Assembly (NCBI GenBank): GCA_951213105.1
Contig: OX578152.1
Coordinates: 73,733,680 to 73,797,679 of the forward strand
Reading direction: 5' to 3'
Source: Amaurobius ferox
Taxonomy: Eukaryota > Arthropoda > Arachnida > Araneae > Amaurobiidae
DNA length: 64,000 bases
In this document: one piece after another, positions 2,285 through 62,317 of the stretch
How positions within the stretch are numbered: the first letter of the stretch is position 1
Layout: every line of letters begins with the position of its first letter
Program-made: the position numbers and the translations under genes
Notes under the pieces: model-generated
Told to the model about the DNA's origin: nothing
The model's input: only the letters and a program-made list of their open reading frames with translations
Databases searched by the model: none

Positions 2285-2417
2285 AAAGGAGGGTACGGTC
2301 CCTGCGTATGCCTCCCCCACTAGGTTCCAGTCCAAATTGGGTGGCACTTCCCGGCCGTTCAAACAGTTACCTTACACCTTTCTGGTAGGTCGGACGGTCT
2401 GGGTCTCAACAACAACA
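2285..2417 (+). mobile_element. SINE, 5'-truncated, inside the Tc1 element
   Basis: 3' half of the tRNA-headed SINE family: the 'ggtacggtccctg' block, 'cttcccggccg', the tail hairpin, 'ggtctgggtctcaacaac'. It is bounded by a perfect 16-bp target duplication, gcacccagaaggagtt, at 2269-2284 and 2418-2433. The site lies inside the Tc1 left terminal repeat. The tRNA head is absent. Related copies are at 18436, 25025, 41747, 53687, 54790 and 62024. Confidence 0.9.
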
Positions 2418-18419: not shown

Positions 18420-18435
18420 CACCTGTAACAAGGTG

Positions 18436-18722
18436 GGCGCGGTAGCCCAGTGGTTAGCGCGCGGGAATTGCACTCAGTACGCTCGGGTTTGATTCCCGTC
18501 GTTGCCAAAACTGCAGCCGTGTTCACGTGGAGTACGATCACGTTAAACATGTAGGTCCGTAAGTCCTTTCGAGAGGTTGGCGGTAGGGGAAAGAGAATAC
18601 GGTCCCTGTGGATGCCTCCCCCACTGGGTTCCGGTCTAAATTGGGTGGCACTTCCCGGCCGTCCAAACAGTTACCTTACACCTTTCTGGTAGGTCGGACG
18701 GTCTGAGTCTCAATAACAACAA
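18436..18722 (+). mobile_element. Full-length tRNA-headed SINE
   Basis: Bounded by a perfect 16-bp target duplication, cacctgtaacaaggtg, at 18420-18435 and 18723-18738. The head begins 'ggcgcggtagcccagtggtt' with an A-box-like 'tagcccagtgg' and B-box-like 'ggtttgattcc'. The body has 'gtgttcacgtggagtacgat' and 'aagtcctttcgagaggttgg'. The tail has a stem-loop (ccggccgtcc ... ggtcggacgg) and ends tctgagtctcaataacaac. RNA polymerase III transcription from the tRNA head is inferred. This is the reference copy for the tRNA-only form. Confidence 0.93.
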
Positions 18723-20027: not shown

Positions 20028-21071
20028 TCTAGAGCTACAAACGCAGGATCTATTAATAGGAAATCAACTGGATTAAGAACGTTTGCAGTACCTCTAGCGT
20101 CAAATTGAAGAAGTTAGAATTCCTATCTCAAAAACGAAGCAAGATAGGGGAACATTTTTAATCACACAGTTGCAGAGCATTCTCTATTTTGTACGGAAAA
20201 GCATGTAGTCCATACATAACATGTACACAGACAATAAGATATGAGCTCAACAATAATGGATAATTATTGCACTGAATCATTTATCTACCATTTTTATACA
20301 ACATTTATTGTTTACTACAAAAAGGATAATTCGAAATAAATTAAAATTAACGTATATCAAGGATTATTATTTTTTCTTGCATATTTCTTGCCATTTCCTT
20401 CTGAAGTACTTCAGTAGTAAACAAAATATTTACATAATTATACTTTTCCGTAGACTTCATTTTTTATCATCTCTGTACATGTTATGTTCAAACCGCACGT
20501 CTTTCCAAACTAAATAGAGAACATTCTACAACTTTTTAATTGAAATTTTTTGCTTATCCTGCTTTGTTTTCAAGATTGGAATTCTAATTCCTTAAATTTA
20601 TCGGAGTCGCTGTAAACCTTAAAGATTGGCAACTACCCTATTAGTGGAGATCTATCAGTAGAACTCTAAATCATTCCAATCCAATCCAATCCGAGAGCTA
20701 CAAGTCATCGGCTAAATCATACCAATTATTTATTTAATACAGTTCTTATCATTCATGTATATGAGCATGGCCAGCATACTGGTCACAAAAAAAACAGTTG
20801 CTAATTGACAAACATAATCATATATTTCATTTACTAATGATCGAGGAAAATAATTTACAGAACTGTGCCTTGTAGTTTAAAGACCCTTACTCGTGACTAC
20901 AGCAAGGGGAAATAGAAACCGTGTGACATCAGCTTCGTCAGGACTTCTCTTGTCGCAAGGTCGGAACTCCAGGTCCATTTTCGTCAAGCAATTTCCAACT
21001 CCTGGCTCTAAAAATCTCAGAGATTTATAAAATTTTAAGAATTTTGTAACATTTTGTATTCTTTTTCACAG
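20028..21071. other. Rest of intron 1
   Basis: No second element recognised. 'cctctagcgtcaaattgaag' near 20093 and a 69-codon frame (20308-20517) carry no known motif. An imperfect inverted relationship exists between 20120-20210 and 20510-20590 ('gagcattctctattttgtac' versus 'taaatagagaacattctaca'), consistent with a MITE of about 550 bp; class unknown. Confidence 0.4.
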
Positions 21072-21333
21072 CCCCAATCCATATCAACAAGGGATAAGTA
21101 TGGCAAGACCGCTCTTCACTACTGTGCAGAATCAGGGACCCTGGCATGCGCCCAGCTGCTGGTCAGCGGGGCAGACCGAACTCTCCTCGACGCCCCGGAC
21201 TCTGAAGGATTCACACCCTTGCATTTGGCGGTCATCTCAGGACACAGAGCCATCGCCAGGCTGCTTTTGCGGGCCGGAGCGGATCCGGACTGTGTTGACA
21301 AAGAGAGGCATTCCGCAGTACACTGGGCAGCAG
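21072..21333 (+). CDS. Inversin-like ankyrin-repeat protein, exon 2 of 5 visible
   Basis: 262-nt exon from a TTTTTCACAG acceptor to a GCAG|GTAAAT donor; 87 codons plus one base (phase 0 in, phase 1 out). It encodes consecutive ankyrin repeats with the diagnostic helix-turn pattern: DKYGKTALHYCAESGTLACA (residues 8-27 of the exon), DSEGFTPLHLAVISGHRAIA (about 41-60), DKERHSAVHWAA (about 75-87). Spacing is close to 33 residues. The following exon completes the last helix as AAVCGD. Ankyrin repeats are protein-binding scaffolds, so a cytoplasmic adaptor role is likely. The specific orthologue is not determined. Confidence 0.95.
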
Positions 21334-21529
21334 GTAAATCTATTGATTTGAAATTATGAGTTAAAATTGCCTCAAACGGGCATATAAAATATTTAAATTC
21401 AGAAGTAAGGAGATTACAGGATCCATGAATACCCACTCCTAAAAGATAACCTTATAGAAGGTGATGGGTAGAAACAGCAATTATATAGCAGCATCAAATG
21501 GCATAAAAACAGTTAGAGATAAAAAAAAA
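21334..21529. other. Start of intron 2
   Basis: Short unique intron sequence before the family A repeat. Confidence 0.5.
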
Positions 21530-25024: not shown

Positions 25025-25409
25025 TTGTTGTTGAGACCCAAACCGTCCGACCTACCAGAAAGGTGTAAAGTAACCGTTTGAACGGCCGGGAAGTGACACC
25101 CAATTTAGACTGGAACCCACTGGGGGAGGCATCCACAGGGGCCGTACTCTCCTTCCCCTACTACCAAACTCTCGGAAGGACTTACGGACCCACATGTTTA
25201 ACGTGATCGTACTCCGCATGAAAACGGCTGCAGTTGTGGCAGCCTGCAAATCCAGCGCGCAAACCACCGGGCTACCGCGCCCGAGATGTGCCAACAGCAC
25301 GCGGTGTTCCCAAGTGGTCACTAACCCAAGTACTAACCGCTCCCGATGCTGCTTCACTTCGGTGATCTAACAAGAATCGGTGTTTTCTGCACGGTAGGGC
25401 CCTTGGCTC
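25025..25409 (-). mobile_element. Composite SINE with 5S rRNA and tRNA heads
   Basis: One insertion bounded by a perfect 13-bp target duplication, aagagctttagtg, at 25012-25024 and 25410-25422. Read on the minus strand it begins with a full-length 5S rRNA-like sequence (25407-25290), an 8-nt linker, a shortened tRNA-like head ('ggcgcggtagcccggtggtt'), the usual SINE body and the stem-loop tail ending in ggtttgggtctcaacaac. The tRNA part has lost its B box: 'gggttcgattcc' of other copies is missing. Polymerase III could start instead from the 5S internal control region. Other copies in the window have only the tRNA head. Confidence 0.9.
25290..25407 (-). pseudogene. 5S rRNA-derived head of the SINE
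   Basis: 118 nt, the normal 5S length. It contains the conserved blocks 'gatcaccgaagtgaagcagc', 'ggttagtacttgggt' and 'ttgggaacaccgcgtgctgt', with the two ends (gccaag..., ...gttggc) able to pair as 5S helix I. It is not a ribosomal gene: it lies inside the SINE target duplications, is fused to SINE sequence without a T-run terminator, and carries differences in loop regions. Confidence 0.88.
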
Positions 25410-26741: not shown

Positions 26742-27112
26742 GGACATGAAGTATGAAATATGAGAATTATTATATTCTTTCCCTAGGCATTGTATATAAT
26801 ACCTAGGCATTCTATAGAATGACAAATGCTATTTAGGCAAAATATGAAAAAAGGAATGATTCAAAGATGTATTTCATATATTGCCGGTTTATGCATTCTA
26901 TGTATTTGGCATTCTATAGAATGCCAAGTATATTTTTGCCAATATATATTTGGAATACCTAAGAAAATCTATATCTATAGAATACCTAAGAAAGGTGTGA
27001 AATTGTAATGGTTTCATAGATTGCCGACCAGTTTTTCGGTATTCTATAAAATGTCTAGATGTTCTATAGAATGACGGCTTTCCTACATTACCGGTAACAT
27101 ATATATTTCACA
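26742..27112. mobile_element. MITE family G, copy 2
   Basis: Shares 'gtatgaaatatgagaattat', 'aatacctaggcattctatag' and the terminal 'taccggtaacatatata' with copy 1. The left terminus is missing and an extra block of 'atagaatacctaagaaa' repeats is present. Confidence 0.7.
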
Positions 27113-27344
27113 TATTATATGTACTCCTGCAGGGCTCGCCAGTTAAATCGCGGGTCGCATTCATACTGTGAAATAATTTTCTAACCCATAAATGCAGTAC
27201 GCTTTTAAATTATACACTTTAAACCAATTTAATTATTTGTATATTCTACCATTTTTTAATGAAAGGCTAACATACACTTGGCAACATTTTAAAAGTGACT
27301 CTTAACAGAGGCGAGTTTGCATGAGAAATTCCACACAATTAATT

Positions 27345-27430
27345 TCCCGACCGTCCAAATAGCTGCTCTATATCCCAAAGATGAGTCGGTCTTTGGGATA
27401 CAGAGCAGCGGTCGGACGGTCTGGGTCTTC
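27345..27430 (+). mobile_element. Hairpin mini-element with nested stem
   Basis: 86-bp insert between copies of an 'acacaat(t/c)aatt' target in family H. The stem accgtcc (27350-27356) pairs with ggacggt (27414-27420) and is followed by 'ctgggtcttca', as in the SINE tail. The loop itself contains a long second hairpin: 'gctgctctatatcccaaaga' pairs with 'tctttgggatacagagcagc'. See the other mini-elements at 42044, 42114, 43784, 55094 and 60545. Confidence 0.75.
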
Positions 27431-28559
27431 AACACAATCAATTCCGATATGCTAAGGAAAACATTGGTAATTGTTTACCATATAATAATGATAATTGTTA
27501 TGTCTCTAATCATAGTAATTGTTATAAATCCCCTCTAATAATATTATTTCCGCATGTGCTGAAAAATCCAAGGAAAATATCGAAATTGAAATATATTTTC
27601 GGTGTGAATTTGATATTGGTACTAATTCTACCATTTCAAGTTAAAATTTGATTTTTTTTTTCAATTTATAGACTGACATAATATAAGCAAAATGTGCTTC
27701 GACTGCAGCCATTTGGACAGCACATAGTTAAAGCACAAAACGGATAACATTATTATCTCTCCTCGTACACTTTTATAAAAACAAAAATTATAATATTTAT
27801 GAAAACATAAATATATATATAAAAAAAATATATAAATATATATAAATATAAACACAAATATAAATATTTATGAAAACAAAAGTTGCAATATTTGTGGGGT
27901 TACCACACCTTATATACCAATAATATTTAAATATTTCTTTTGTACATAATGAATGTTTTTGTTAATTTACCGTGTGAGTAATCGAGGCTTAGTCATTCAA
28001 GAAAGCTGGCTGCGGTATATATATGACCGTAACTAGTTGAACAAGAATCTGAGATAATCTGTTTTAGAACGCGTTGACTAGCCAGGATTATGAAAATTCA
28101 CTGTGTAATGAAGCTAAAAAATTCGACAATTTTAATTTTGAGCAAGCACGTCACAACTACTTCGCTATTTTATAACATATACTGCATATATTATATGTTC
28201 TTCTTCAGGGCTTGCTAGTTCTATAGCGGGTAGCGTTCATACTGTGAAATAATTTTGTAACCCGTAAACGAAGTACGTTGTTAAAATAAACATTTCAAAC
28301 CAGTTTAAATATGTGAATATTCTACCATTTCGGAATGAAATTCTAACATAAATTTGGTAAACATGACTTTTAATAGGGGCAAGTTGACATGAGAATTCTA
28401 CACAATCAATTGCGATATGCTAAGGTAAACAATGGAAATTGTTTACCTTATAATAATGATAATTGTTATGATTCTAATAATGGTAATTGTTATAATTCCC
28501 GTCTACTAATGACAATTGTTATAAATTCCCCTCTAATCATTGTAATGGGGGACTTGTAT

Positions 28560-31579: not shown

Positions 31580-33520
31580 TTAAGAAAACCAAGGAAAATA
31601 ACAGAAATTCAAATATATTTTCAGTGTGAGATTCATAGTGGTACTAATTCTGCAATTCTAATCAAAATTTCATTTATTTTTTTTAATTTATAGACCGGCA
31701 TGTCATAGAATTTTTTTTTCATCTGCAGTTATTTGGGCAGCAATTACTTAAGCCCATAACGATTAACATTAATATATCTCCCTATAGACTATAAGATTAT
31801 GAAAACAAAAATAGAAATATATTCTGGAAGGGTGGGGAAGAGTACCGACTTTATATACCGATAATATTTAAATAATTTTTGTTTATTATAAATGTTTTCT
31901 TTAATTAATGTTAGTATTAATGTCCTTGGCATTTAAAGAAGCTAGCTGCTCTATATAAGCACAGAATACTATATTCAGAAGGTTCACTCCCATAGGAACC
32001 TATGGCAACATCGTTAACATAGGATTTCGCATAGACACTAGCGTTCGATGAGCCGACCATCCTCGACTGCTAGATTTGGCGACTATCGCTCAATTGGCGA
32101 TTTTATGTTAATGCGGCCAAAAAAAAAAAAAATAAATAAATACGGAACTGTACTTTTATAATTTTTTAAACTATAAACATGATCAGCATTTAAAAATACT
32201 TTTATCTGTAATATGTTTAACTTTAAATAAATAAACACAGATATATATATATTTAATTCATGCAATCATAAACTAAATAAAAAAATTGACGCATTGCATC
32301 ACTGTAAATCATTATACACCAAAAATTACAAGCTAACATACCCAAAAGACTAAAATATTATATAATATTTTCAGCCTAAAAAGTATACTAGCGTGTAGAT
32401 AGTTAAATTGCTTAGTTCTTAATTTATTCTGGGATGCTGTTATTATATATATATATATATATATATTTTTAAATACATTAATATTTTTATACTAAATATC
32501 AAATTTACATAAATGCATTATCAAAGGTGTCGAACTCAATCGTTAATTAGAAGGGGGGGGGGGGCATTATTTTCCACATTACGTCAGTTAGTAAAAAGCA
32601 TGTAAAATATATACACATCCAATATTATGTTCAACTTTCTCTAGAAAAAGCTATCTAAATATCAATTTTTATACATTTTATATAAATGCGGAAAAGGTTT
32701 TTTAACTAATAATGCCATTGTTTCTTAGAATTTAATCTAATGATAATACTGCACCAATTTCTTATGATGAACACGTGCATAGGATGAAATATGGGATAGA
32801 TAACACATAATGTTTTATTTAAATAAAAATAAATTACATACCTTTTAAACGTAATTCCTTTTCTTTTAGTAATCCATAAAATAGCAGCAAAAGTAACATG
32901 CGATGTGCAAGCGATGATAGAACAAAGTTCTAAGTTCCAAGTGTTTCGTTCAGTTCTAAATAGGGTTATATTAGCAGAACGTCTTGGCGAAAACCGTCAC
33001 AAACCATCGCCAAGCCTGCCAACCTTGATATTTTGGTTGGTGGTTGAGGGCGCTGAGGTCGAGTGAAATATCTGTATATGTTAATCTGTATATAAGAATG
33101 TAGTTAGTGGAAATAGGCAAGAATCTAGGATTATCTTCAGAACACGTTGACTAGCTTGAAGCATGAAAATCCACCGTATAAACTAGCTTCGCAAATGTTA
33201 ATTTAGAACAAACACACTTCACCGCAACTTTACTATTTTATAAAATATTATATATACTGAATATATTATATATACTTCTGCAGGGCTCGCCAGTTACATC
33301 GAAGTTTCGCATTCATACTGTGAAATAATTTTGTAACCCGTAAACGCAGTACGCTTTTACATTAAACATTTTAAACCAATTTTATTATTTGAATATTCCA
33401 CCATTTCTGAATGAAAGGCTAACATAAACTTGACAACATTTAAGCGTGTTGTTTGACAGGAGTGAGTTGGCATCATAAATCCCACACAATCTATTCCGAT
33501 ATGCTAAGGTAAACGGTTTT

Positions 33521-38640: not shown

Positions 38641-39340
38641 GCAAACATTTTATTATAAATCATCGGTGATCCTTAGTATCTTTTGTATGATAACTACGTA
38701 GGTGAACAAAATATTTTCGTCTGCTCGTCCTTTTATCCAAACATATGTCCATTGTCCTATATTTCTTTAGAAAAACCTTACATATATATTATTCGCATCT
38801 TCCCTATGAAGAAACAATAATGAACGTTTGCTTTAAAATATAGTTTCACTGTTTAATGACGAATGTATGAATTCTAAATACAATCATGTAACAAACATCA
38901 TTCTAGTTCGGCGTTAATTTTTACTTGGCATTATTAAATATACTGAAATCCCCGAAAGCGGTTTTAGTGCAGATAATTTATAAGTACGGATAAAACTGCT
39001 GCTAAAGCATAAAATTTAAATAACTTCATTAAAGCAGCATATAATAAAAAATTATTTAGTTAATAGTTTACTTTTATTTTATTTTAATATTTTATTATTT
39101 CTTATAATTTAATTTATTTTATTGTTTAATTTTATTTAAGAATTAGTTAATTAATTAGGTATTTTCTATTTACCCGAACCAGGCGATAATCGTTAAATAT
39201 GGTTTAAGTATGTTATTTATCTGTACAACATACGCTTTGAACATTATGTTCTTATGTTTGAAAATAAATAAAATTTCTATCTATATTTTATCAATATGTT
39301 TTTCGTATGTGATTTGGAGTTTCGATTCGTGATATTCTCC
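38641..39340. other. AT-rich intron sequence
   Basis: No gene recognised. 39050-39160 is almost pure A/T with 'ttattttattttaatatttt'. Confidence 0.4.
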
Positions 39341-39344
39341 ATTT

Positions 39345-40170
39345 CGAGCCTTGGGAAATATATGATTTTGAGCCCTGAGAAATATATGATTTCGAGTCCT
39401 GGGAAATATATGATATTCCAGCTCTGGGAAATATACGATTTCGAGCCGTGGGAAATATATGATTTCGAGTCCTGGGAAATGTATGATTTCGAGCCCTGGG
39501 AAATGCATAATTTCGAGCCCTGGGAGATGTATGATATCGAGCCCTGGGAAATGTATGATTTCGAGCCCTGGGAAATATATGATTTCGAGCCCTGGGAAAT
39601 GTACGATTTCGAGCCCTGGGAAATGTATGATTTCGAGCCCTGGGAAATGTATGATTTCGAGCCCTGGGAAATGTATGATTTCGAGCCCTGGGAAATGTAT
39701 GATTTCGAGCCCTGGGAAATATATGATTTCGAGCCCTGGGAAATGTACGATTTCGAGCCCTGGGAAATGTATGATTTCGAGCCCTGGGAAATGTATGATT
39801 TTGAGCCCTGGGAAATGTATGATTTCGAGCCCTGGTAAATGTATGATTTCGAGCCCTGGGAAATGTATGATTTCGAGCCCTGGGAAATATATGATTTCGA
39901 GCCCTGGGAAATGTACGATTTCGAGCCCTGGGAAATATATGATTTCGAGCCCTGGGAAATGTACGATTTCGAGCCCTGGGAAATGTATGATTGCGAGCCC
40001 TGGGAAATGTATGATTTTGAGCCCTGGGAAATGTACGATTTCGAGCCCTGGGAAATATAATTTCGATTCCTGGGAAATATATGATTTCCAGCCCTGGGAA
40101 ATATACGATTTCGTGCCCTGGGAAATATATGATTTCAAGCCCTGGGAAATATATGATTTCGAGCCCTGGG
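39345..40170. repeat. 24-bp minisatellite, about 34 copies
   Basis: Unit gggaaatgtatgatttcgag + ccct. Because 24 is a multiple of three and no unit creates a stop, long open frames run through it on both strands (285 codons on the minus strand, 240 and 180 on the plus). They give HFPGLEII, CMISSPGK and MYDFEPWE repeats. No initiation context, splice signal or flanking domain supports translation. Variants atatga and gtacga recur side by side (about 39573/39597, 39719/39745, 39887/39913, 39936/39961), which indicates a higher-order pattern. It lies 0.7 kb before exon 3. Confidence 0.95.
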
Positions 40171-40882
40171 AATTTTTATAGCGAGGAAGAGAAGATCCTA
40201 TTTAGGAACTGACAACTGACATGGCACTTTCCGTACAAGTGTTGGTATGCGCATCACGCACCAAGAACATTGAGGTCTGGGTTCTGGAGGGGGTCTTAAT
40301 GAGGTATCCATGAAAGCATCGGTAAACGAAGAATTGTACGAATAAATTTAACAGAGTTTTTAGAAGCAATTGTTTGTGTCCCAACCATTGGAATATGAGT
40401 CGCTGCAGATGACAAGCACTATAAGCCCATTCCACCCCAAACATTGTTTGAGAAAATACGACATGACTTCAACTGCCTTATTTTTTCTCGATTGCGCCCT
40501 GCAGAAACGTACTTAAAAACATGCTGCTTCTCATTAAACGTTAATTGAGAAGAAAATGTGAAATGTGACTTTACCTTCTTCGAAAACTACCAATTTATCA
40601 CAGCAGCACGCACGACTTGGCTACATTTCTCAGGGAAAAAACTATCAACGACGGACAGTAATAAGCACGTCCTTATTGGACGACGCACAGTGTACGAATG
40701 AAGAGTTTCAGAGAGTGCCAGCTGACTTCAGTGCCTCCATATGGGAAATAGACCCCTTACCCTGTTCTACTCTGGTTCCCCATTCCGACCTAGTCTCATC
40801 TACTTGGCATATAATTTCTGACTGAGTTTTAATTTTTTTTCATCCAGTCTCTAGTTTAAAATCGATAATGTATCTTTTTCAG
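40171..40882. other. End of intron 2
   Basis: Less AT-rich than average. An 80-codon minus frame (40202-40444) and an 86-codon plus frame (40565-40825) are present but unrecognised. The latter ends close to the acceptor (tatctttttcag, 40882) but is in a different frame from exon 3. Confidence 0.4.
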
Positions 40883-41122
40883 TGTGTGGTGACATCGAGA
40901 GCCTTGATCTCCTCCTAAGTCAAGGAGCTAATCCGTCCACCCCAGACATTCTAGGCGCCTATCCAATCCACTACGCTGCCCAGATGTGCGGAACAAATAA
41001 CCTGAACGGAAAGGACCCTGAAACCGGGCTGAATACTCTCAGGAAGTTGGTGCAGAGAGGTGCATCCATTCAGTGCAGAGATCGCGACGGAAGAGAACCC
41101 CTGCTGTGGGCTGCAAGTGCAG
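40883..41122 (+). CDS. Inversin-like ankyrin-repeat protein, exon 3 of 5 visible
   Basis: 240-nt exon between TATCTTTTTCAG and GTGCAG|GTAAGA. The first two bases complete a valine codon with exon 2, and the exon ends with one base (phase 1). It encodes CGDIESLDLLLSQGANPSTP (rest of the repeat begun in exon 2), DILGAYPIHYAAQMCG, a roughly 15-residue insert with GKDPETG, then LNTLRKLVQRGASIQCRDRD and GREPLLWAASAG. The insert between repeats (TNNLNGKDPETG) is unusual for canonical 33-residue repeats and may be a family hallmark. The frame stays open only across the exon. Confidence 0.95.
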
Positions 41123-41734
41123 GTAAGATACAAAAAAAGTTATAATTTTACCTTACCTGCAATACATATTAAACAATTGTCTTAGTTGTACATAGTTGTT
41201 CCTCTGGTTTCCCTCGAATCTTGACGTTTGCACAATTCGAGCATTATGACTCTTCTGCTGAATCTAAACTCACGAAAACATCACATCAGGGTAACATCAT
41301 TCAAATTTTCAAATTAACTCCAACTAAAAGGAGCTACGTGTGATTTGAAAGAGGATTAGTATACTTCAGGAAATATCCTTCCTCTCTCCCTTGACCTGAA
41401 ATTACAGCTCGAGTCCTCCGTTAATAAAAAAAACCCTCCATTTTAGAGTTCTTTTTTCTCCGATGTTACCGCACCAAATGCATTTATTTTTTGTTTTATT
41501 TTTCTCAACATTGTGACCATATTACAGAGAAAAAAAGAATCAACAACTTCTTTGAGGGCTGAGCTAAAAACCCCTAGAAATCGAGGTTGTCAAATAAAGT
41601 GTATTATACACTTGCCAGCTACGAATTCAGGCATGACGACTTCGCCAGACGGTACTCTGCCATGTTCCTAAAATTTCCTCTCTGAATTGTCCATATCTAG
41701 TTAGCTTTGTATACGCTCTTTACCAACTTTAGAG
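41123..41734. other. Start of intron 3
   Basis: No gene or repeat recognised before the SINE. Confidence 0.4.
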
Positions 41735-41746
41735 TACTTACTTTAG

Positions 41747-42027
41747 GGGGGGGGGACATCCCAGTATTTTGGTTGAAGCGATTGCACTCGGACGACCCAA
41801 GCTGGATTCTCGGCACTGCCTAAACTGCCCTTGTGTTGACGCTAAATACGGGCACGTTAAATATGTAGATCCATAAGTCCTTCCAAGAGGTTGGTGGTAG
41901 GGGTTGGAGAGTACGGTCCCTGCGAATGTGGCACCCATTAGATTCCGGTCTAAATTGAGTGGCACTTCCCGACCGTTCAAACAGATACCTTACACCTTCG
42001 GGTAGGTCTGTCAAGGTCGCAGAAAAA
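41747..42027 (+). mobile_element. SINE, diverged full-length copy
   Basis: tRNA-derived head degraded ('gcgattgcactcggacgacc'), body 'aagtccttccaagaggttgg' and 'ggtctaaattgagtggcact', tail 'cccgaccgttcaaacag' with 'taccttacaccttcgggtag'. Flanked by an imperfect duplication, tacttactttag (41735-41746) and tacctactttag (42028-42039). The tail stem is damaged, unlike in the other copies. Confidence 0.8.
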
Positions 42028-42043
42028 TACCTACTTTAGAGTT

Positions 42044-42100
42044 AAAGACCCAGACCGTCCGACTCATCCGAAGACTTGAGCAACTATTTGGACGGCCGGG
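42044..42100 (-). mobile_element. Hairpin mini-element 1
   Basis: 57-bp insert between identical 13-bp repeats, ctactttagagtt, at 42031-42043 and 42101-42113. Read on the minus strand: cccggccgtcc, loop, 'cttcggatgagtc', ggacgg, tctgggtcttt. The stem is ccgtcc (42055-42060) with ggacgg (42090-42095). This is the same layout as the last 60 bp of the SINE, without the SINE body. Confidence 0.8.
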
Positions 42101-42113
42101 CTACTTTAGAGTT

Positions 42114-42174
42114 GAAGACCCAGACCGACCGGCTCGTCAGCAAGGACATGAGCAACCGATTAGTCGGCCGGTGG
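42114..42174 (-). mobile_element. Hairpin mini-element 2
   Basis: 61-bp insert adjacent to mini-element 1, between ctactttagagtt at 42101-42113 and 42175-42187. The stem is ccgac (42125-42129) with gtcgg (42163-42167). Compared with element 1, the T:A pair has become A:T with both partners changed. The loop keeps 'ggttgctcatgtc' (sense), close to 'agttgctcaagtc' of element 1. Confidence 0.8.
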
Positions 42175-42193
42175 CTACTTTAGAGTTGTCGTA

Positions 42194-42320
42194 ACTCAAC
42201 AAATAATAGATTTATTGAATAGAAACTCAACAAATAATAGACTCAACATATAATAGACTCAACGAATATTAGACTCAACAAGTAATAGATTCAACAAATA
42301 ATAGATTCAACAAATAATAG
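42194..42320. repeat. 16-17 bp tandem repeat
   Basis: About seven units of 'actcaacaaataatag' with small changes (attcaac, aacgaatattag). Confidence 0.85.
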
Positions 42321-43440: not shown

Positions 43441-44336
43441 TTTGGCGACAGTTTCGTCAAATTAGCGACATTTTAAAAAATCGCCAAATTTATCGCCAAG
43501 TGGGACTGTAGAACTGACAGTTCCACTTTGCGACAAATTGACGAAATATCATCACAATACTATCCCCTAACAAAAAACAATTAATATCATTTATGTAGCG
43601 CAATTTTATCAATTTCAAGATATTTTTATAGATTTCAAAAAAATTTTTATCAATTTGGTGACATTTTAAAAATTCGCTAAATGCATTACTAAGTAGAATG
43701 GTTGGTCTGACAGATAAATGCTAACCAAACATCATTTCAGTACTCTCTTCTAACAAAACAAAAAAAAATTTCATTGATATGTAGAAGACCCAAGCCACAC
43801 GACCAACCCGAAGGTTTATGGCAGCTGTTTGTGTGTCGTTTATATCAATTTGGCGAGATTTCCGTCAATTTGGCAAAGTTTAAGAAAAGTTGTCAAATTA
43901 GCGATATCCCTCCAAATTCGCAGCTTTGAATTTGCAGATCTGAATGAAACATTCTTATCCCGTTTCAATATACTAAATGAAAACACTACAATTGTATTAG
44001 AAGATATACCCGCTCTACTCTTTTCCTGTTTCAACAATCGGCTATATGAATTTATTGGCTAAACACAATATATGAGTTTAGTAGCAAAATACGATATAAG
44101 CTTGAAAACTCTTTGCCAAAATAAATGAAATTGATGTACGCAGTCAGCAATTAATATAATTAAAAGAAAAATCAAACTGTCCATTCATAAGATATACTTT
44201 TATATTCATTTATCCATTTATTTATTATTTAAATCGAAAGAAAATAATAAAAACATTAACAAACACATTTAATTTAATTGCGATGCCGAGCAACATGATA
44301 TATCCTCCTAAAATGTTAAAATTTATTAACCACTAA
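43441..44336. other. Intron 3 sequence with 'ttggcga' motifs
   Basis: Repeated 'atttggcgac' and 'tcgccaaattt' motifs near 43445-43500 and 43845-43900 recall the core of family B. A hairpin mini-element lies at 43784-43838. A 77-codon frame (43829-44062) spans this repeat material and is not considered a gene. Confidence 0.45.
43784..43838 (-). mobile_element. Hairpin mini-element 3
   Basis: Sense strand (minus): cgacacacaaacagctgcca, 'accttcgggttggtc', gtgtggcttgggtcttc. The stem is ccacac (43795-43800) with gtgtg (43831-43835). Close to the element at 55094 in loop and stem. No clear target duplication. Confidence 0.65.
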
Positions 44337-53686: not shown

Positions 53687-53881
53687 TTGTTGTTGAAACC
53701 CAGACCGTCCGACCTACCAGAAAGGTGTAAGGTAACTGTTTGGACGGTCGGGAAGTGCCACCCAATTTAGACCGGAACCCAGTGGGGGAGGCTTCCACAG
53801 GGACCGTACCCTCCTTCCCCTACCACCAACCTCTCGGAAGGACTTTCGGACCCACATGTCTAACGTGATCGTACTCCGCAA
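53687..53881 (-). mobile_element. SINE, 5'-truncated
   Basis: 195 bp of the 3' part: starts (on + coordinates) with 'gttgttgttgaaacccagac', the tail stem (ccgtccgacc ... ggacgg), and ends within the 'gatcgtactccgc' block, before the tRNA head. Perfect 14-bp duplication aattggctgaagtg at 53673-53686 and 53882-53895. Confidence 0.92.
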
Positions 53882-54789: not shown

Positions 54790-55073
54790 CTGTTGTTGAG
54801 CCCCAGACCGTCCAACCTACCAGAAAGGTGCAAAGTAACTGTTTGGACGGCCGGGAAGTGCACCCAATTTAGACCGGAACCCAGTGGGGGAGGCATCCAC
54901 AGGGACCGTACCGTCCTTCCCCTACCACCAACCTCTCGGAAGGACTTACGGACCCATGTGTTTAACGTGATCGTACTCCGCGTGAACACGGTAGCAGTTT
55001 GGGCAGTGGCGGGAATCGAACCCGGGCCTACCGAATGCAATTCTCGCGCGCTAACCACTGGGCTACCGCGCCC
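54790..55073 (-). mobile_element. Full-length tRNA-headed SINE
   Basis: Tail at the left ('ttgttgagccccagaccgtc'), tRNA head at the right. On the minus strand the head reads gggcgcggtagcccagtggt and contains 'gggttcgattcccg', a good B box. Target duplication tacattagtatatg at 54776-54789 and 55074-55087. The 122-codon frame across it (54787-55155) is an artefact of the SINE sequence. Confidence 0.92.
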
Positions 55074-55093
55074 TACATTAGTATATGTGAAAA

Positions 55094-55147
55094 ACCCAGA
55101 CCACACGACAGACCCGAAGGCTTACTGTAGCTGTATGTGTGGCCGAA
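55094..55147 (-). mobile_element. Hairpin mini-element 4
   Basis: 54-bp insert flanked by tacattagtatatgtgaaaa at 55074-55093 and 55148-55167. The stem is ccacac (55101-55106) with gtgtgg (55137-55142). Sense strand: ggccacac, loop with 'gccttcgggtctgtc', gtgtggtctggg. It abuts the SINE and uses the same target sequence. Confidence 0.82.
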
Positions 55148-55674
55148 TACATTAGTATATGTGAAAAAAAAATTTCACATATACTAACTACTAAATTACA
55201 TACCGGGTACATTAGTATATGTGAAAAGAAAATTTTCACATATACTAACTACTAAATTACATACTGGATACATTAGTATATGTGAAAAAAAATTTCACAT
55301 ATACTAACTACTAAATTACATACCGGGTACATTAGTATATGTGAAAAGAAAATTTTCACATATACTAACTACTAAATTACATACTGGATACATTAGTATA
55401 TGTGAAAAAAAATTTCACATATACTAACTACTAAATTACATACCGGGTACATTAGTATATGTGAAAAGAAAATTTTCACATATACTAACTACTAAATTAC
55501 ATACTGGATACATTAGTATATGTGAAAAAAAATTTCACATATACTAACTACTAAATTACATACCGGATACATTAGTATATGTGAAAAAAAAAAATTTTTC
55601 ACATATACTAACTACTAAATTACATACCGGATACATTAGTGTATGTGAAAAAAAAATTTCACATATACTACTAC

Positions 55675-60215: not shown

Positions 60216-60544
60216 ATTTAGTTACTTCTAGTATTACTTCTGAATTAGATATATTCCGAATTTTGTATTTTCTTGCATTTATGCCTACAAATATGCTTGT
60301 ATGTTTCACTGCAGTGGCGGCTTTTTAGAGCCAGCAAATTCACCTCAGCTGTATTCAATAAAAAATCGGAATAACATGTTTTTAATAATTTATTTTTGTA
60401 TTTAGTATTTGGTTTTATGATTATAATGGTCAAAATTAATTTGCAGTCTTCGGTAGTTAATTGTTGTAAATGTAGCCTCAAAACTTTTTTGCGGAGGGGG
60501 AGGGGGCACCGAGATTTTCTGTTACGTCACTATACTTACGGGGG

Positions 60545-60613
60545 GGGGGGGGGTCCCGGCCATACACTAAACTGCCACTAACCCCTGGGTTGGCTGTATG
60601 GTCTGGGCCTTTA
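60545..60613 (+). mobile_element. Hairpin mini-element 5, inside the hAT element
   Basis: Inserted between copies of actatacttacgggg (60529-60543 area and 60614-60628). The stem is ccatac (60560-60565) with gtatgg (60596-60601), then 'tctgggccttta'. The left duplication is blurred by a G-run. Confidence 0.75.
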
Positions 60614-60734
60614 ACTATACTTACGGGGCATATTTTTTGTACTAGGGTTCCAAAAAAAATTTTTTTTAAGCGTAGGGTTCCGAAGGCGTTAGAAGTTTGA
60701 AGACCACTGCTCTACGGCATTACTTTTCGCGAAT

Positions 60735-61400
60735 TTTCTTGTCTGCTGTAGAAAACTAGTCAAATCTACCGATCTACTGTAGAAGATATGTCAAATCTAC
60801 CGGTCAACTGAAGAAGATTTCTTAAATCTTCTCGCTCAGTGTGGAAATTTGTCAAATCATCCGATCTGCTGTAAAGCGTTTGTTAAATCCACCGGTTCTT
60901 TGTGGAAGTTTTTTCATATCTATCGGTCCTTTGTGAAAAAATTGTCAAATCTAGCAGTTTTCTGTAGTAGATTTGTCAAATATATCAGTTCGCTGTAGAG
61001 AATTTGTCAAATATATCGGTAAGCTGTAGAAAATTTGTCAAATCTAGAAATCCACAGTAGAAGGTTCACCAAATTTACTGATCTGTAGTACAATATTTAT
61101 CAATCTTCTGGTCCACTGCAGAAATTTTGTCAAATCTTCCGATCCGCTGCAAAAAATTTGTCAAATTTACAGGCCCTTCGGGGAAGATTTTTCAAATATA
61201 GCAGTTTGGTGTAGTAGATGTGACAAATCTGTCGGTTCGTAGTAGAGAATTTGTCAAATCTACAGGTCCACAGTAGACGATTTGTCAAATGTATCCATGG
61301 TACAAGATTTGTGAAATCTATTAACTCGCAGTGGAAAATTTATCAAGTCCAAAAAATCTAACGATCCACGCTAGAACTTTTAAGAAATTACTGGTTCGCG
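60735..61400. repeat. Degenerate tandem repeat of about 36 bp before exon 5
   Basis: About 18 units of the form 'gtagaaaatttgtcaaatct' + 'accggtccact', each with several changes. It runs to within 60 bp of the exon 5 acceptor. Too diverged to be a recently active satellite. Confidence 0.85.
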
Positions 61401-61453
61401 ATATATTAAGTTGAGAACTATTGATTTAATCAATATCATTTGTTTGTTATCAG

Positions 61454-61652
61454 CTCTTCATTGTGCTGCTAGTCGGGGCCACACTGCTTGCATGGAAACT
61501 CTTATTGCACTGTGTGGAGCGAGAGTGGACACAGGAGACCACATTGGTTGCAGTCCTCTCTTTTACGCTGCCGCTCAGGGTCAAGCAGATTGTGCTCAAG
61601 TTCTACTCAAACACTGTGCAGACCCCAATCGGCAGGATGATAAAGGGAGAAC
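61454..61652 (+). CDS. Inversin-like ankyrin-repeat protein, exon 5 of 5 visible
   Basis: 199-nt exon between TTTGTTATCAG and AGAAC|GTAAGT. Two bases complete an alanine codon, 65 codons follow, and two bases are carried on (phase 2). It encodes LHCAASRGHTACMETLIALC, GARVDTGDHIGCSPLFYAAA, QGQADCAQVLLKHCADPNRQ, DDKGR: two full ankyrin repeats and the start of a third (DKGRT). The next exon should begin with one base completing threonine and continue the repeat; it is not found in the remaining 2.3 kb, so the gene continues beyond the window. Confidence 0.95.
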
Positions 61653-62012
61653 GTAAGTACATTAAAATTAATTTCAGTGATTTTTGTAAATTTGATTTTC
61701 TTGTCACAAACGATTTCAACAGTAAAGACAATTTTGACTTTAAAATAATTCTTTCACACCAAAACCAGCATCAATGGACCGATTTCACGCTTCTTAGCAA
61801 TCATTGTCATCAATAGCAAAAAAACGCAAAATAGCCTGTAATGTGTCACAATTTTTCAAAATTCATAGTAAATAACTAAAAGTCAATTTTCATCACGTAG
61901 CATTATTTGACAAAGCATTATGCTGAAATTGCAATGAGGTTGAAGGGCTAAGTTTATAGTCACAAAATCCCTCTGATCAAAATTATCTAAAAAATATTGG
62001 CATTTTACACAC
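61653..62012. other. Start of intron 5
   Basis: Unique AT-rich intron sequence. The open frame that reads on from exon 5 in a shifted frame is not coding. Confidence 0.45.
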
Positions 62013-62023
62013 GCGCCGATTGC

Positions 62024-62317
62024 AAGGCGCGGTAGCCCAGTCGTTTGTGCGCGGGAATTGCACTCGGTAGACCCGGGTTCGATTCCCACCACTGCAAAAA
62101 CCGCCACGTGTTCACGCGGAGTACGATCACGATAAACATGTGGGTCCGTAAGTCCTTCCGAGAGATTGGTGGTAGGGGAAGGAGGATACGGTCCCTGTGG
62201 ATGTCTCCCCCACTGGGTTCCGGTCTAAATTGGGTGGCACTTCCCGGCCGTCCAAACAGTTACCTTACATCTTTCTCGTAGGTCGGACGGTCTGGGTCTC
62301 AACATCAACAACAACAT
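62024..62317 (+). mobile_element. Full-length tRNA-headed SINE
   Basis: Head 'ggcgcggtagcccagtcgtt', B box 'gggttcgattccc', body 'cgcggagtacgatcacgata' and 'ccgagagattggtggtaggg', tail stem (ccggccgtcc ... ggtcggacgg), end 'tctgggtctcaacatcaaca'. Target duplication gc(g/t)ccgattgc at 62013-62023 and 62318-62328. Confidence 0.9.

What the first reader, a model, noticed from the sequence alone, without database searches (positions are those of the whole stretch)
42044..42174. Family of about 55-85 bp hairpin elements with covarying stems and their own target duplications
Six small inserts (27345-27430, 42044-42100, 42114-42174, 43784-43838, 55094-55147, 60545-60613) share one plan: (c)ccGGCC, stem, loop ending near 'cTTCGGgTnnGTC', stem', then GGTCTGGGTCTT. 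The stem sequences differ but stay paired: ccgtcc/ggacgg, ccgac/gtcgg, ccacac/gtgtgg, ccatac/gtatgg. Both sides change together, which points to selection on the folded RNA or DNA. Four or five are flanked by direct repeats of 10-20 bp. The 5' edge is constant at (c)ccggcc, so they do not look like random 5' truncations. The last 60 bp of the local SINE has the same fold. They may be minimal retro-parasites: just the 3' recognition hairpin of a LINE/SINE system, mobilised alone.
Basis: partly seen in the sequence, partly recalled or inferred. Interest (0 to 1): 0.9.

Follow-up and report, generated by a model that had tools for sequence, protein, structure and literature searches.

The report
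Retrotransposon tail hairpins inserted alone
Six 55-87-base hairpins in this eukaryotic DNA fit one folded shape, also found at the end of a local SINE, while their stems change in matched pairs, and four of them are flanked like separate insertions; they are likely copies of just the recognition tail of a retrotransposon, which would make the tail alone enough to jump.

Summary
A covariance model built only from six SINE tails finds all six inserts (E 3e-11 to 4e-4, next match 0.37); without base pairs four of them weaken and E60 sinks into noise. In ten core pairs 59 of 60 cells pair. E42a, E42b and E60 abut perfect 13-15 bp target duplications; E27 has an 11/12 one, and two related sites in the window lack the insert and hold one copy. 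E55's flank is a satellite unit; E43 has no duplication. Perfect duplications beside elements only 62-79% alike imply that the stems diverged in source lineages before insertion. Best reading: target-primed copies of the 3' recognition hairpin of a 'stringent' LINE/SINE system, the RNA likely trimmed to the hairpin's 5' edge. Partner LINE, source genes and copy numbers are unknown: the whole-genome search did not complete (15 tries), and no reverse-transcriptase domain was found in 134 ORFs scanned. Covarying 3' hairpins are a known kind (PMC3747384, PMC4176376); hairpin-only insertions with one 5' edge would be a new variant.

The parts
42044..42100 (-). E42a: hairpin-only insert (CCCGGCCGTCC..GGACGGTCTGGGTCTTT), UUCG loop
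   Evidence: flanked by 42031-42043 and 42101-42113
42114..42174 (-). E42b: second hairpin-only insert at the same target site, different stem
   Evidence: flanked by 42101-42113 and 42175-42187
42031..42043 (-). target duplication copy 1 (AACTCTAAAGTAG in element orientation)
   Evidence: this 13-mer occurs only at the three junctions
42101..42113 (-). target duplication copy 2, shared by E42a and E42b
42175..42187 (-). target duplication copy 3
27345..27431 (+). E27: hairpin-only insert, 93% like E42a over aligned letters, with a 26-nt fold-back insertion at 27390-27415
27333..27344 (+). left duplication of E27 (ACACAATTAATT); right copy 27432-27443 (ACACAATCAATT), 11/12
   Evidence: sites without the insert near 28400 and 33484
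43784..43838 (-). E43: hairpin insert without a clear duplication; 5' edge not fixed
55090..55147 (-). E55: hairpin insert between two copies of a satellite word and next to a full SINE
60554..60613 (+). E60: hairpin insert, preceded by ten extra G (60544-60553)
60529..60543 (+). left duplication of E60 (ACTATACTTACGGGG); right copy 60614-60628
   Evidence: only these two copies in the window
18435..18713 (+). full-length tRNA-headed SINE with the same 3' hairpin (18652-18713), followed by an AAC-rich tail
54796..55073 (-). full-length SINE copy beside E55
62026..62302 (+). full-length SINE copy
25031..25407 (-). SINE copy with a 5S rRNA head (25289-25407) before the tRNA head
53693..53877 (-). 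SINE copy truncated at SINE position 95
2286..2409 (+). SINE copy truncated at SINE position 156
41781..42022 (+). older divergent SINE copy (79%) whose decayed tail has the UUCG loop

Best explanation
The six inserts fit one covarying RNA hairpin that is also the 3' end of the local SINE, and they are likely reverse-transcribed copies of that 3' recognition hairpin alone, made by the enzyme of an unseen 'stringent' LINE. Shown here: the common fold (basal stem, 6-bp stem, asymmetric internal loop, 4-bp stem, apical stem), its compensatory changes, target duplications beside four inserts, and a stop of similarity at the hairpin's 5' edge in those four. Inferred: a LINE protein binds the hairpin and primes at its 3' end. 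Inferred: longer tail-bearing transcripts are degraded 5'-to-3' until the folded, perhaps protein-bound hairpin blocks the nuclease, and the protected fragment is copied to its end and inserted. That would explain one 5' edge in several source lineages with different stems, and the lack of a pol III promoter in the inserts.
For: Fold and homology: R2, built from SINE tails only, finds 6 of 6 inserts at E <= 4.2e-4 with noise from 0.37; without base pairs E42b goes from 1.9e-7 to 0.0019, E43 from 4.2e-4 to 0.0034, E55 from 3.3e-8 to 0.027, E60 from 8.4e-7 to 0.30. Covariation: 19 two-sided cells against 6.9 in shuffles, 0 of 500; one pair (columns 26-41) shows AU, CG, GC and UA in six sequences. 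Insertion: duplications, uniqueness; for E27 two related sites in the window read through without the insert and with one copy of the duplicated word. Edge: no similarity to the SINE body or between sites above shuffled controls in the 200 nt upstream of five insert sites; duplication-backed 5' ends lie at alignment columns 2, 3, 3 and 4, while two truncated SINEs begin at SINE positions 95 and 156. Several sources: three duplication pairs identical over 41 compared positions beside elements 62-79% alike; rough chance 3e-6 if the divergence came after insertion (E27's 11/12 left out). Precedent for parts of the mechanism: stem-loop binding by LINE ORF2 (PMC4176376, abstract and passages); R2 work linking template decay from the 5' end with 5'-truncated insertions and proposing a stable fold as a barrier to 5'-3' exonucleases (PMC11331408, abstract and passages).
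Against: No LINE with this tail was seen: no RT or endonuclease family among those listed for 134 of 155 ORFs. RNA trimming rests on four 5' ends. E43 has no duplication and its 5' edge cannot be fixed, as the repeat it interrupts resembles its first bases. E55's flank is a satellite unit. The SINE tails end in TCTC plus AAC repeats, the inserts in TCTT without a repeat, so one enzyme for both is not proven. Structure does not help every copy: E27 scores the same with and without pairs (1.5e-6 and 1.0e-6), its R2 match uses the fold-back in place of its true 3' arm, and the decayed SINE tail scores better without pairs (1.2e-10 against 5.5e-6); the two models also weigh their sequences differently. 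Single-sequence folding is weak for E43 (z +0.08), E42b (-1.69) and E55 (-1.55). Flank matches as good as those of the duplications occur at 6-11 of 400 random places in this repeat-rich window.
Confidence: 0.5

Rival explanations
1. They are ordinary, extremely 5'-truncated copies of several LINE or SINE families that share this 3' hairpin; the reverse transcriptase fell off early, and the equal 5' edge is a small-number coincidence or a drop-off just past the bound hairpin.
For: 5' truncation is normal for this class and occurs for the local SINE in the same window (positions 95 and 156). Different stems would be different families. Only four 5' ends are fixed by duplications.
Against: Four of four duplication-backed 5' ends fall within 3 columns at the base of the stem; uniform ends over a 278-nt template would put three further ends within 5 nt of the first with chance about 6e-6 (rough; copies cut inside the hairpin could be missed). 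No longer copy with a non-SINE tail was recognised in the window, though an unknown LINE body upstream of E43 would not be recognised.
Confidence: 0.28
2. They are a self-standing class of miniature retroposons: small source genes transcribe just the hairpin, and lineages of these genes evolve under selection for the fold.
For: Sequence groups (E27/E42a 93% alike; E42b; E43/E55 78%; E60) share one plan; clean duplications show the divergence predates insertion; two copies of one group (E27, E42a) lie at separate sites.
Against: No pol III A or B box in the inserts except one weak A-box-like match in E42a, no source gene seen; each group could equally come from a longer parent.
Confidence: 0.17
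3. They are DNA elements: fold-back or MITE-like palindromes whose arms stay matched by template switching rather than by selection on RNA.
For: E27 carries a fold-back insertion of template-switch type, so arm-copying does happen here.
Against: The 3' TCTT end is unpaired, so there are no terminal inverted repeats; duplications are of unequal length, 12-15 bp; G-U pairs stand in the helices; the same fold ends a tRNA SINE that is plainly a retroposon.
Confidence: 0.04

Closest known systems
Stringent-type LINE/SINE 3' tail hairpins (zebrafish ZfL2, eel UnaL2; plant L1/SINE ~50-nt hairpins)
   Same: 3' terminal hairpin of about 50-60 nt shared between elements, variable stems with compensatory changes (PMC3747384, passages; PMC4176376, abstract and passages)
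   Different: Here the hairpin is present alone as an insertion; the fold has stacked stems with an asymmetric internal loop; the partner LINE is unseen
5'-truncated LINE or SINE insertions
   Same: 3' end intact, target duplications of 12-16 bp, upstream part missing
   Different: Same 5' edge at the base of the stem in four of four duplication-backed cases; tails unlike the local SINE's
RTE-clade LINEs and their SINEs ((CAA)n or other microsatellite ends)
   Same: Local SINEs end in AAC repeats and most duplications here start with A or CA, read off without statistics; in reptiles the LINE and the SINE of one system end in different repeats (PMC13295347, abstract, passages and section 3.3)
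   Different: The thymine stretch ten bases upstream was not tested; no LINE found, so the clade is a guess

Membership tests
tRNA-derived SINE | tRNA-like 5' head with pol III A and B boxes | tested here: not met
   Inserts start at the hairpin; pattern search found no box but one weak A-box-like match in E42a; the full SINE has both, its A box by a looser pattern
5'-truncated copies of the local SINE | tail sequence like the local SINE's (90-97% among six SINE copies) | tested here: not met
   Inserts are 64-80% identical to SINE tails and lack the TCTC(AAC)n end
Non-LTR retroposon inserted by target-primed reverse transcription | variable-length target duplication abutting the element | tested here: met
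   E42a, E42b, E60 perfect, E27 11/12 with two sites lacking the insert; E55 uninformative, E43 absent
Stringent LINE/SINE 3' tail | conserved 3' hairpin with compensatory stem changes | tested here: met
Stringent LINE/SINE 3' tail | a partner LINE with the same 3' end | tested here: inconclusive
   No RT family in 134 of 155 listed ORFs; the whole genome could not be searched (15 unanswered tries, last)
MITE / fold-back DNA transposon | terminal inverted repeats and fixed-length duplication | tested here: not met
   3' end TCTT unpaired, duplications 12-15 bp
Known Rfam RNA family | match above gathering score | tested here: not met
   Only a 5S rRNA match in the window; best E 1.5 at 41950-42200; the other inserts were covered only

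The most novel reading that the evidence does not exclude
The reverse-transcriptase recognition hairpin is itself a mobile unit: several lineages of hairpin-only retroposons, mostly 55-60 nt, with no head, no promoter and no terminal repeat, keep their fold by compensatory change, jump with their own target duplications and re-enter the same target site.
Probability: 0.2. Interest if true: 0.85.

Novelty: new variant of a known kind. Interest (0 to 1): 0.58.

Why it matters
If it holds genome-wide, these are natural experiments showing the least RNA that a LINE machinery will copy and insert: a folded tail of about 60 nt whose stems may change as long as they pair. The 5' edge would be a genomic record of how far template RNA is degraded before insertion, and the stem variants would trace LINE tail evolution even where the LINE is gone. 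Inserts this small would probably escape ordinary repeat annotation.

Tried and rejected
Local-SINE truncation: rejected, tail sequence and terminus differ. DNA fold-back/MITE: disfavoured. Known RNA families: none. A LINE in the window: none seen; Pfam on 134 ORFs (62 aa or more, low-complexity ones left out) gave only ankyrin repeats and fragments of DNA transposases. Outside sequences: exact-pattern scans of viral contigs and of bacterial/archaeal genomes gave 0 matches; these collections are not expected to hold the host. Literature: searches and the sequence-string search 48 listed, by titles and abstract starts, no paper on hairpin-only insertions or on these sequences; only open-licence PMC text was searched and few of the terms named this exact thing. 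E55's duplication was first counted as clean and then withdrawn when its flank proved to be a satellite unit. The G-run before E60 was considered as untemplated addition; it may equally be slippage of the target's GGGG, and the G-run before the old SINE near 41.75 kb may be decayed SINE head; left open. E43: four related repeat copies lack the hairpin, but the flank beyond the insert matches three of them only weakly (29, 3 and 2 of 500 shuffles as good), so this is suggestive only.

Full report
What is there. The window looks eukaryotic: ankyrin-repeat ORFs and fragments of DNA transposases, tRNA-headed SINEs and satellites. The organism was not identified. Six small inserts lie at the stated places: E27 (+), E42a, E42b, E43, E55 (all -) and E60 (+).

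The shared fold. Aligned in their own orientation, five inserts and six SINE tails fit one hairpin: a basal stem CCC/GGG, a 6-bp stem, an asymmetric internal loop near AAACAG[CT]T, a 4-bp stem, and a short apical stem whose loop is UUCG in E42a, E43, E55 and in the decayed old SINE tail near 42.0 kb. With five inserts and one SINE tail (E27 left out because of its insertion), 90.7% of 108 cells pair and 19 cells have changes on both sides; shuffles give 6.9 on average and 0 of 500 reach 19; sliding the partner gives 0-5. Two further measures are weaker: 7 pairs with two-sided change (shuffle mean 4.6, 27 of 500 as high) and 18 further pair types (16.3, 108 of 500). With all six SINE tails the picture is the same (20 cells, 0 of 500; 29 and 35 of 500 for the weaker two). 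In the ten core pairs 59 of 60 cells pair; the exception is in E43. Shuffle counts are not probabilities, and rows within a group are related.

Independent test of the fold. A model trained on SINE tails alone (R2) ranks all six inserts and the old SINE tail directly after the training set: E42a 2.8e-11, E55 3.3e-8, E42b 1.9e-7, E60 8.4e-7, E27 1.5e-6, old SINE tail 5.5e-6, E43 4.2e-4 (over model positions 9-49); the next match is 0.37. The same six tails as a sequence-only model (R3) give E42a 5.9e-8, E27 1.0e-6, E42b 0.0019, E43 0.0034, E55 0.027 and E60 0.30, the last behind a noise match, while the old SINE tail does better (1.2e-10). So pairing carries much of the signal for E42b, E55 and E60, some for E42a and E43, none for E27, whose R2 match ends at 27403 and so uses the fold-back instead of the true 3' arm. 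E-values are rough, and the two models weigh the sequences differently. Single-sequence folding is strong for E27 (z -9.40), E42a (-2.60) and E60 (-2.19), modest for E42b (-1.69) and E55 (-1.55), and E43 prefers another fold.

Insertion anatomy. E42a and E42b sit between three identical copies of AACTCTAAAGTAG, a word found nowhere else in the window; E60 between two copies of ACTATACTTACGGGG, also unique; E27 between ACACAATTAATT and ACACAATCAATT. The second E27 word also occurs at 28400, which led to a direct test: with the insert and one duplication copy left out, the E27 flanks align straight through to 28177-28510 (81%) and 33251-33514 (84%), each holding one copy of the word and no hairpin. 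E27 is thus an 87-nt insertion with a 12-bp duplication. E55 is flanked by CACATATACTAATGTA, but that word occurs nine times because it belongs to a roughly 60-bp satellite that E55 adjoins, so it cannot be counted. E43 has no flank match above chance; it interrupts a repeat that has other copies without the hairpin, but the match beyond the insert is weak and the repeat resembles E43's first bases, so its edge is open. Clean SINE duplications are 14-16 bp. In one search, flank matches as good as those of the inserts occurred at 6-11 of 400 random positions, mostly, I infer, through the window's tandem repeats. At 42 kb two different hairpins share one site, and at 55 kb E55 and a full SINE adjoin the same word; re-use of the intact upstream nick site would place the newer insert upstream (inference).

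The edge. In the four duplication-backed cases the element begins at alignment column 2 (E42b), 3 (E60, and E27 by analogy) or 4 (E42a), the base of the stem; E60 has ten further G of unclear origin. The 200 nt upstream of five insert sites show no similarity to the SINE body, nor between sites, above shuffled controls (E42a was not tested, as E42b lies upstream of it). Of seven SINE copies, two clearly truncated ones begin at SINE positions 95 and 156.

Several sources. E27 and E42a are 93% identical over aligned letters; all other insert pairs are 62-79%. Local SINE tails are 90-97% alike. If the insert differences had arisen after insertion from one source, the duplications should have diverged as much; 41 compared positions beside E42a, E42b and E60 show none, chance about 3e-6 under simple assumptions. 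E27's pair, with one mismatch in 12, was left out. So the compensatory changes most likely happened in source lineages that were still being copied, which is where selection on the RNA would act.

Mechanism. The fold, the target duplications and the SINE link point to a stringent LINE system, in which the LINE protein binds a 3' stem-loop (PMC4176376, abstract and passages). In plants, about 50-nt 3' hairpins shared by L1 LINEs and SINEs show the same kind of compensatory stems (PMC3747384, passages). What needs explaining is the constant 5' edge. A reverse transcriptase enters from the 3' end and would already have copied the whole stem before reaching that edge, whereas a 5'-3' nuclease would be stopped there. 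I therefore favour trimmed RNA copied to its end. R2 experiments report that template instability goes with 5'-truncated insertions and propose that a stable fold is a barrier to 5'-3' exonucleases; they also describe snap-back products and untemplated additions (PMC11331408, abstract and passages). The fold-back in E27 (19 of 20 nt complementary to its own loop arm) is of template-switch type; whether it arose at insertion is unknown. The trimming step is inference.

What was not possible. The whole-genome search did not complete in 15 tries (first, last), so copy numbers, 5'-end distribution, the partner LINE and R-scape statistics remain open. With 64 kb and four duplication-backed cases, ordinary truncated tails of unseen LINE families remain a serious rival.

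Noticed in passing
window 25031-25407 (-): One SINE copy has a full-length 5S rRNA-like sequence in front of its tRNA head, all inside one target duplication (ACACTAAAGCTCTT): a 5S-tRNA composite or a template switch.
   Followed up: partly
window 27362-27415 (+): E27 has a 26-nt insertion that copies its own loop arm in reverse complement (19 of 20), turning the tail into a very stable hairpin (z -9.40).
   Followed up: partly
window 55164-55660: A satellite of about 60 bp with internal inverted repeats; E55 and a full SINE sit at one end of it, next to the same word.
   Followed up: partly
window 60544-60553: Ten extra G between the target duplication and E60; a G-run also precedes the old SINE near 41.75 kb.
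   Followed up: partly
window 27100-27750, 28177-28510, 33251-33514: A repeat family around E27 with copies that lack the hairpin, useful as empty sites.
   Followed up: yes
window 39272-40195: A 24-bp tandem array of about 38 units, open in several frames on both strands.
   Followed up: no
window 21039-21356, 40855-41142, 61384-61653 (+): Three ORFs that read like ankyrin repeats in the same orientation (Pfam matched three unnamed members), perhaps exons of one gene.
   Followed up: no
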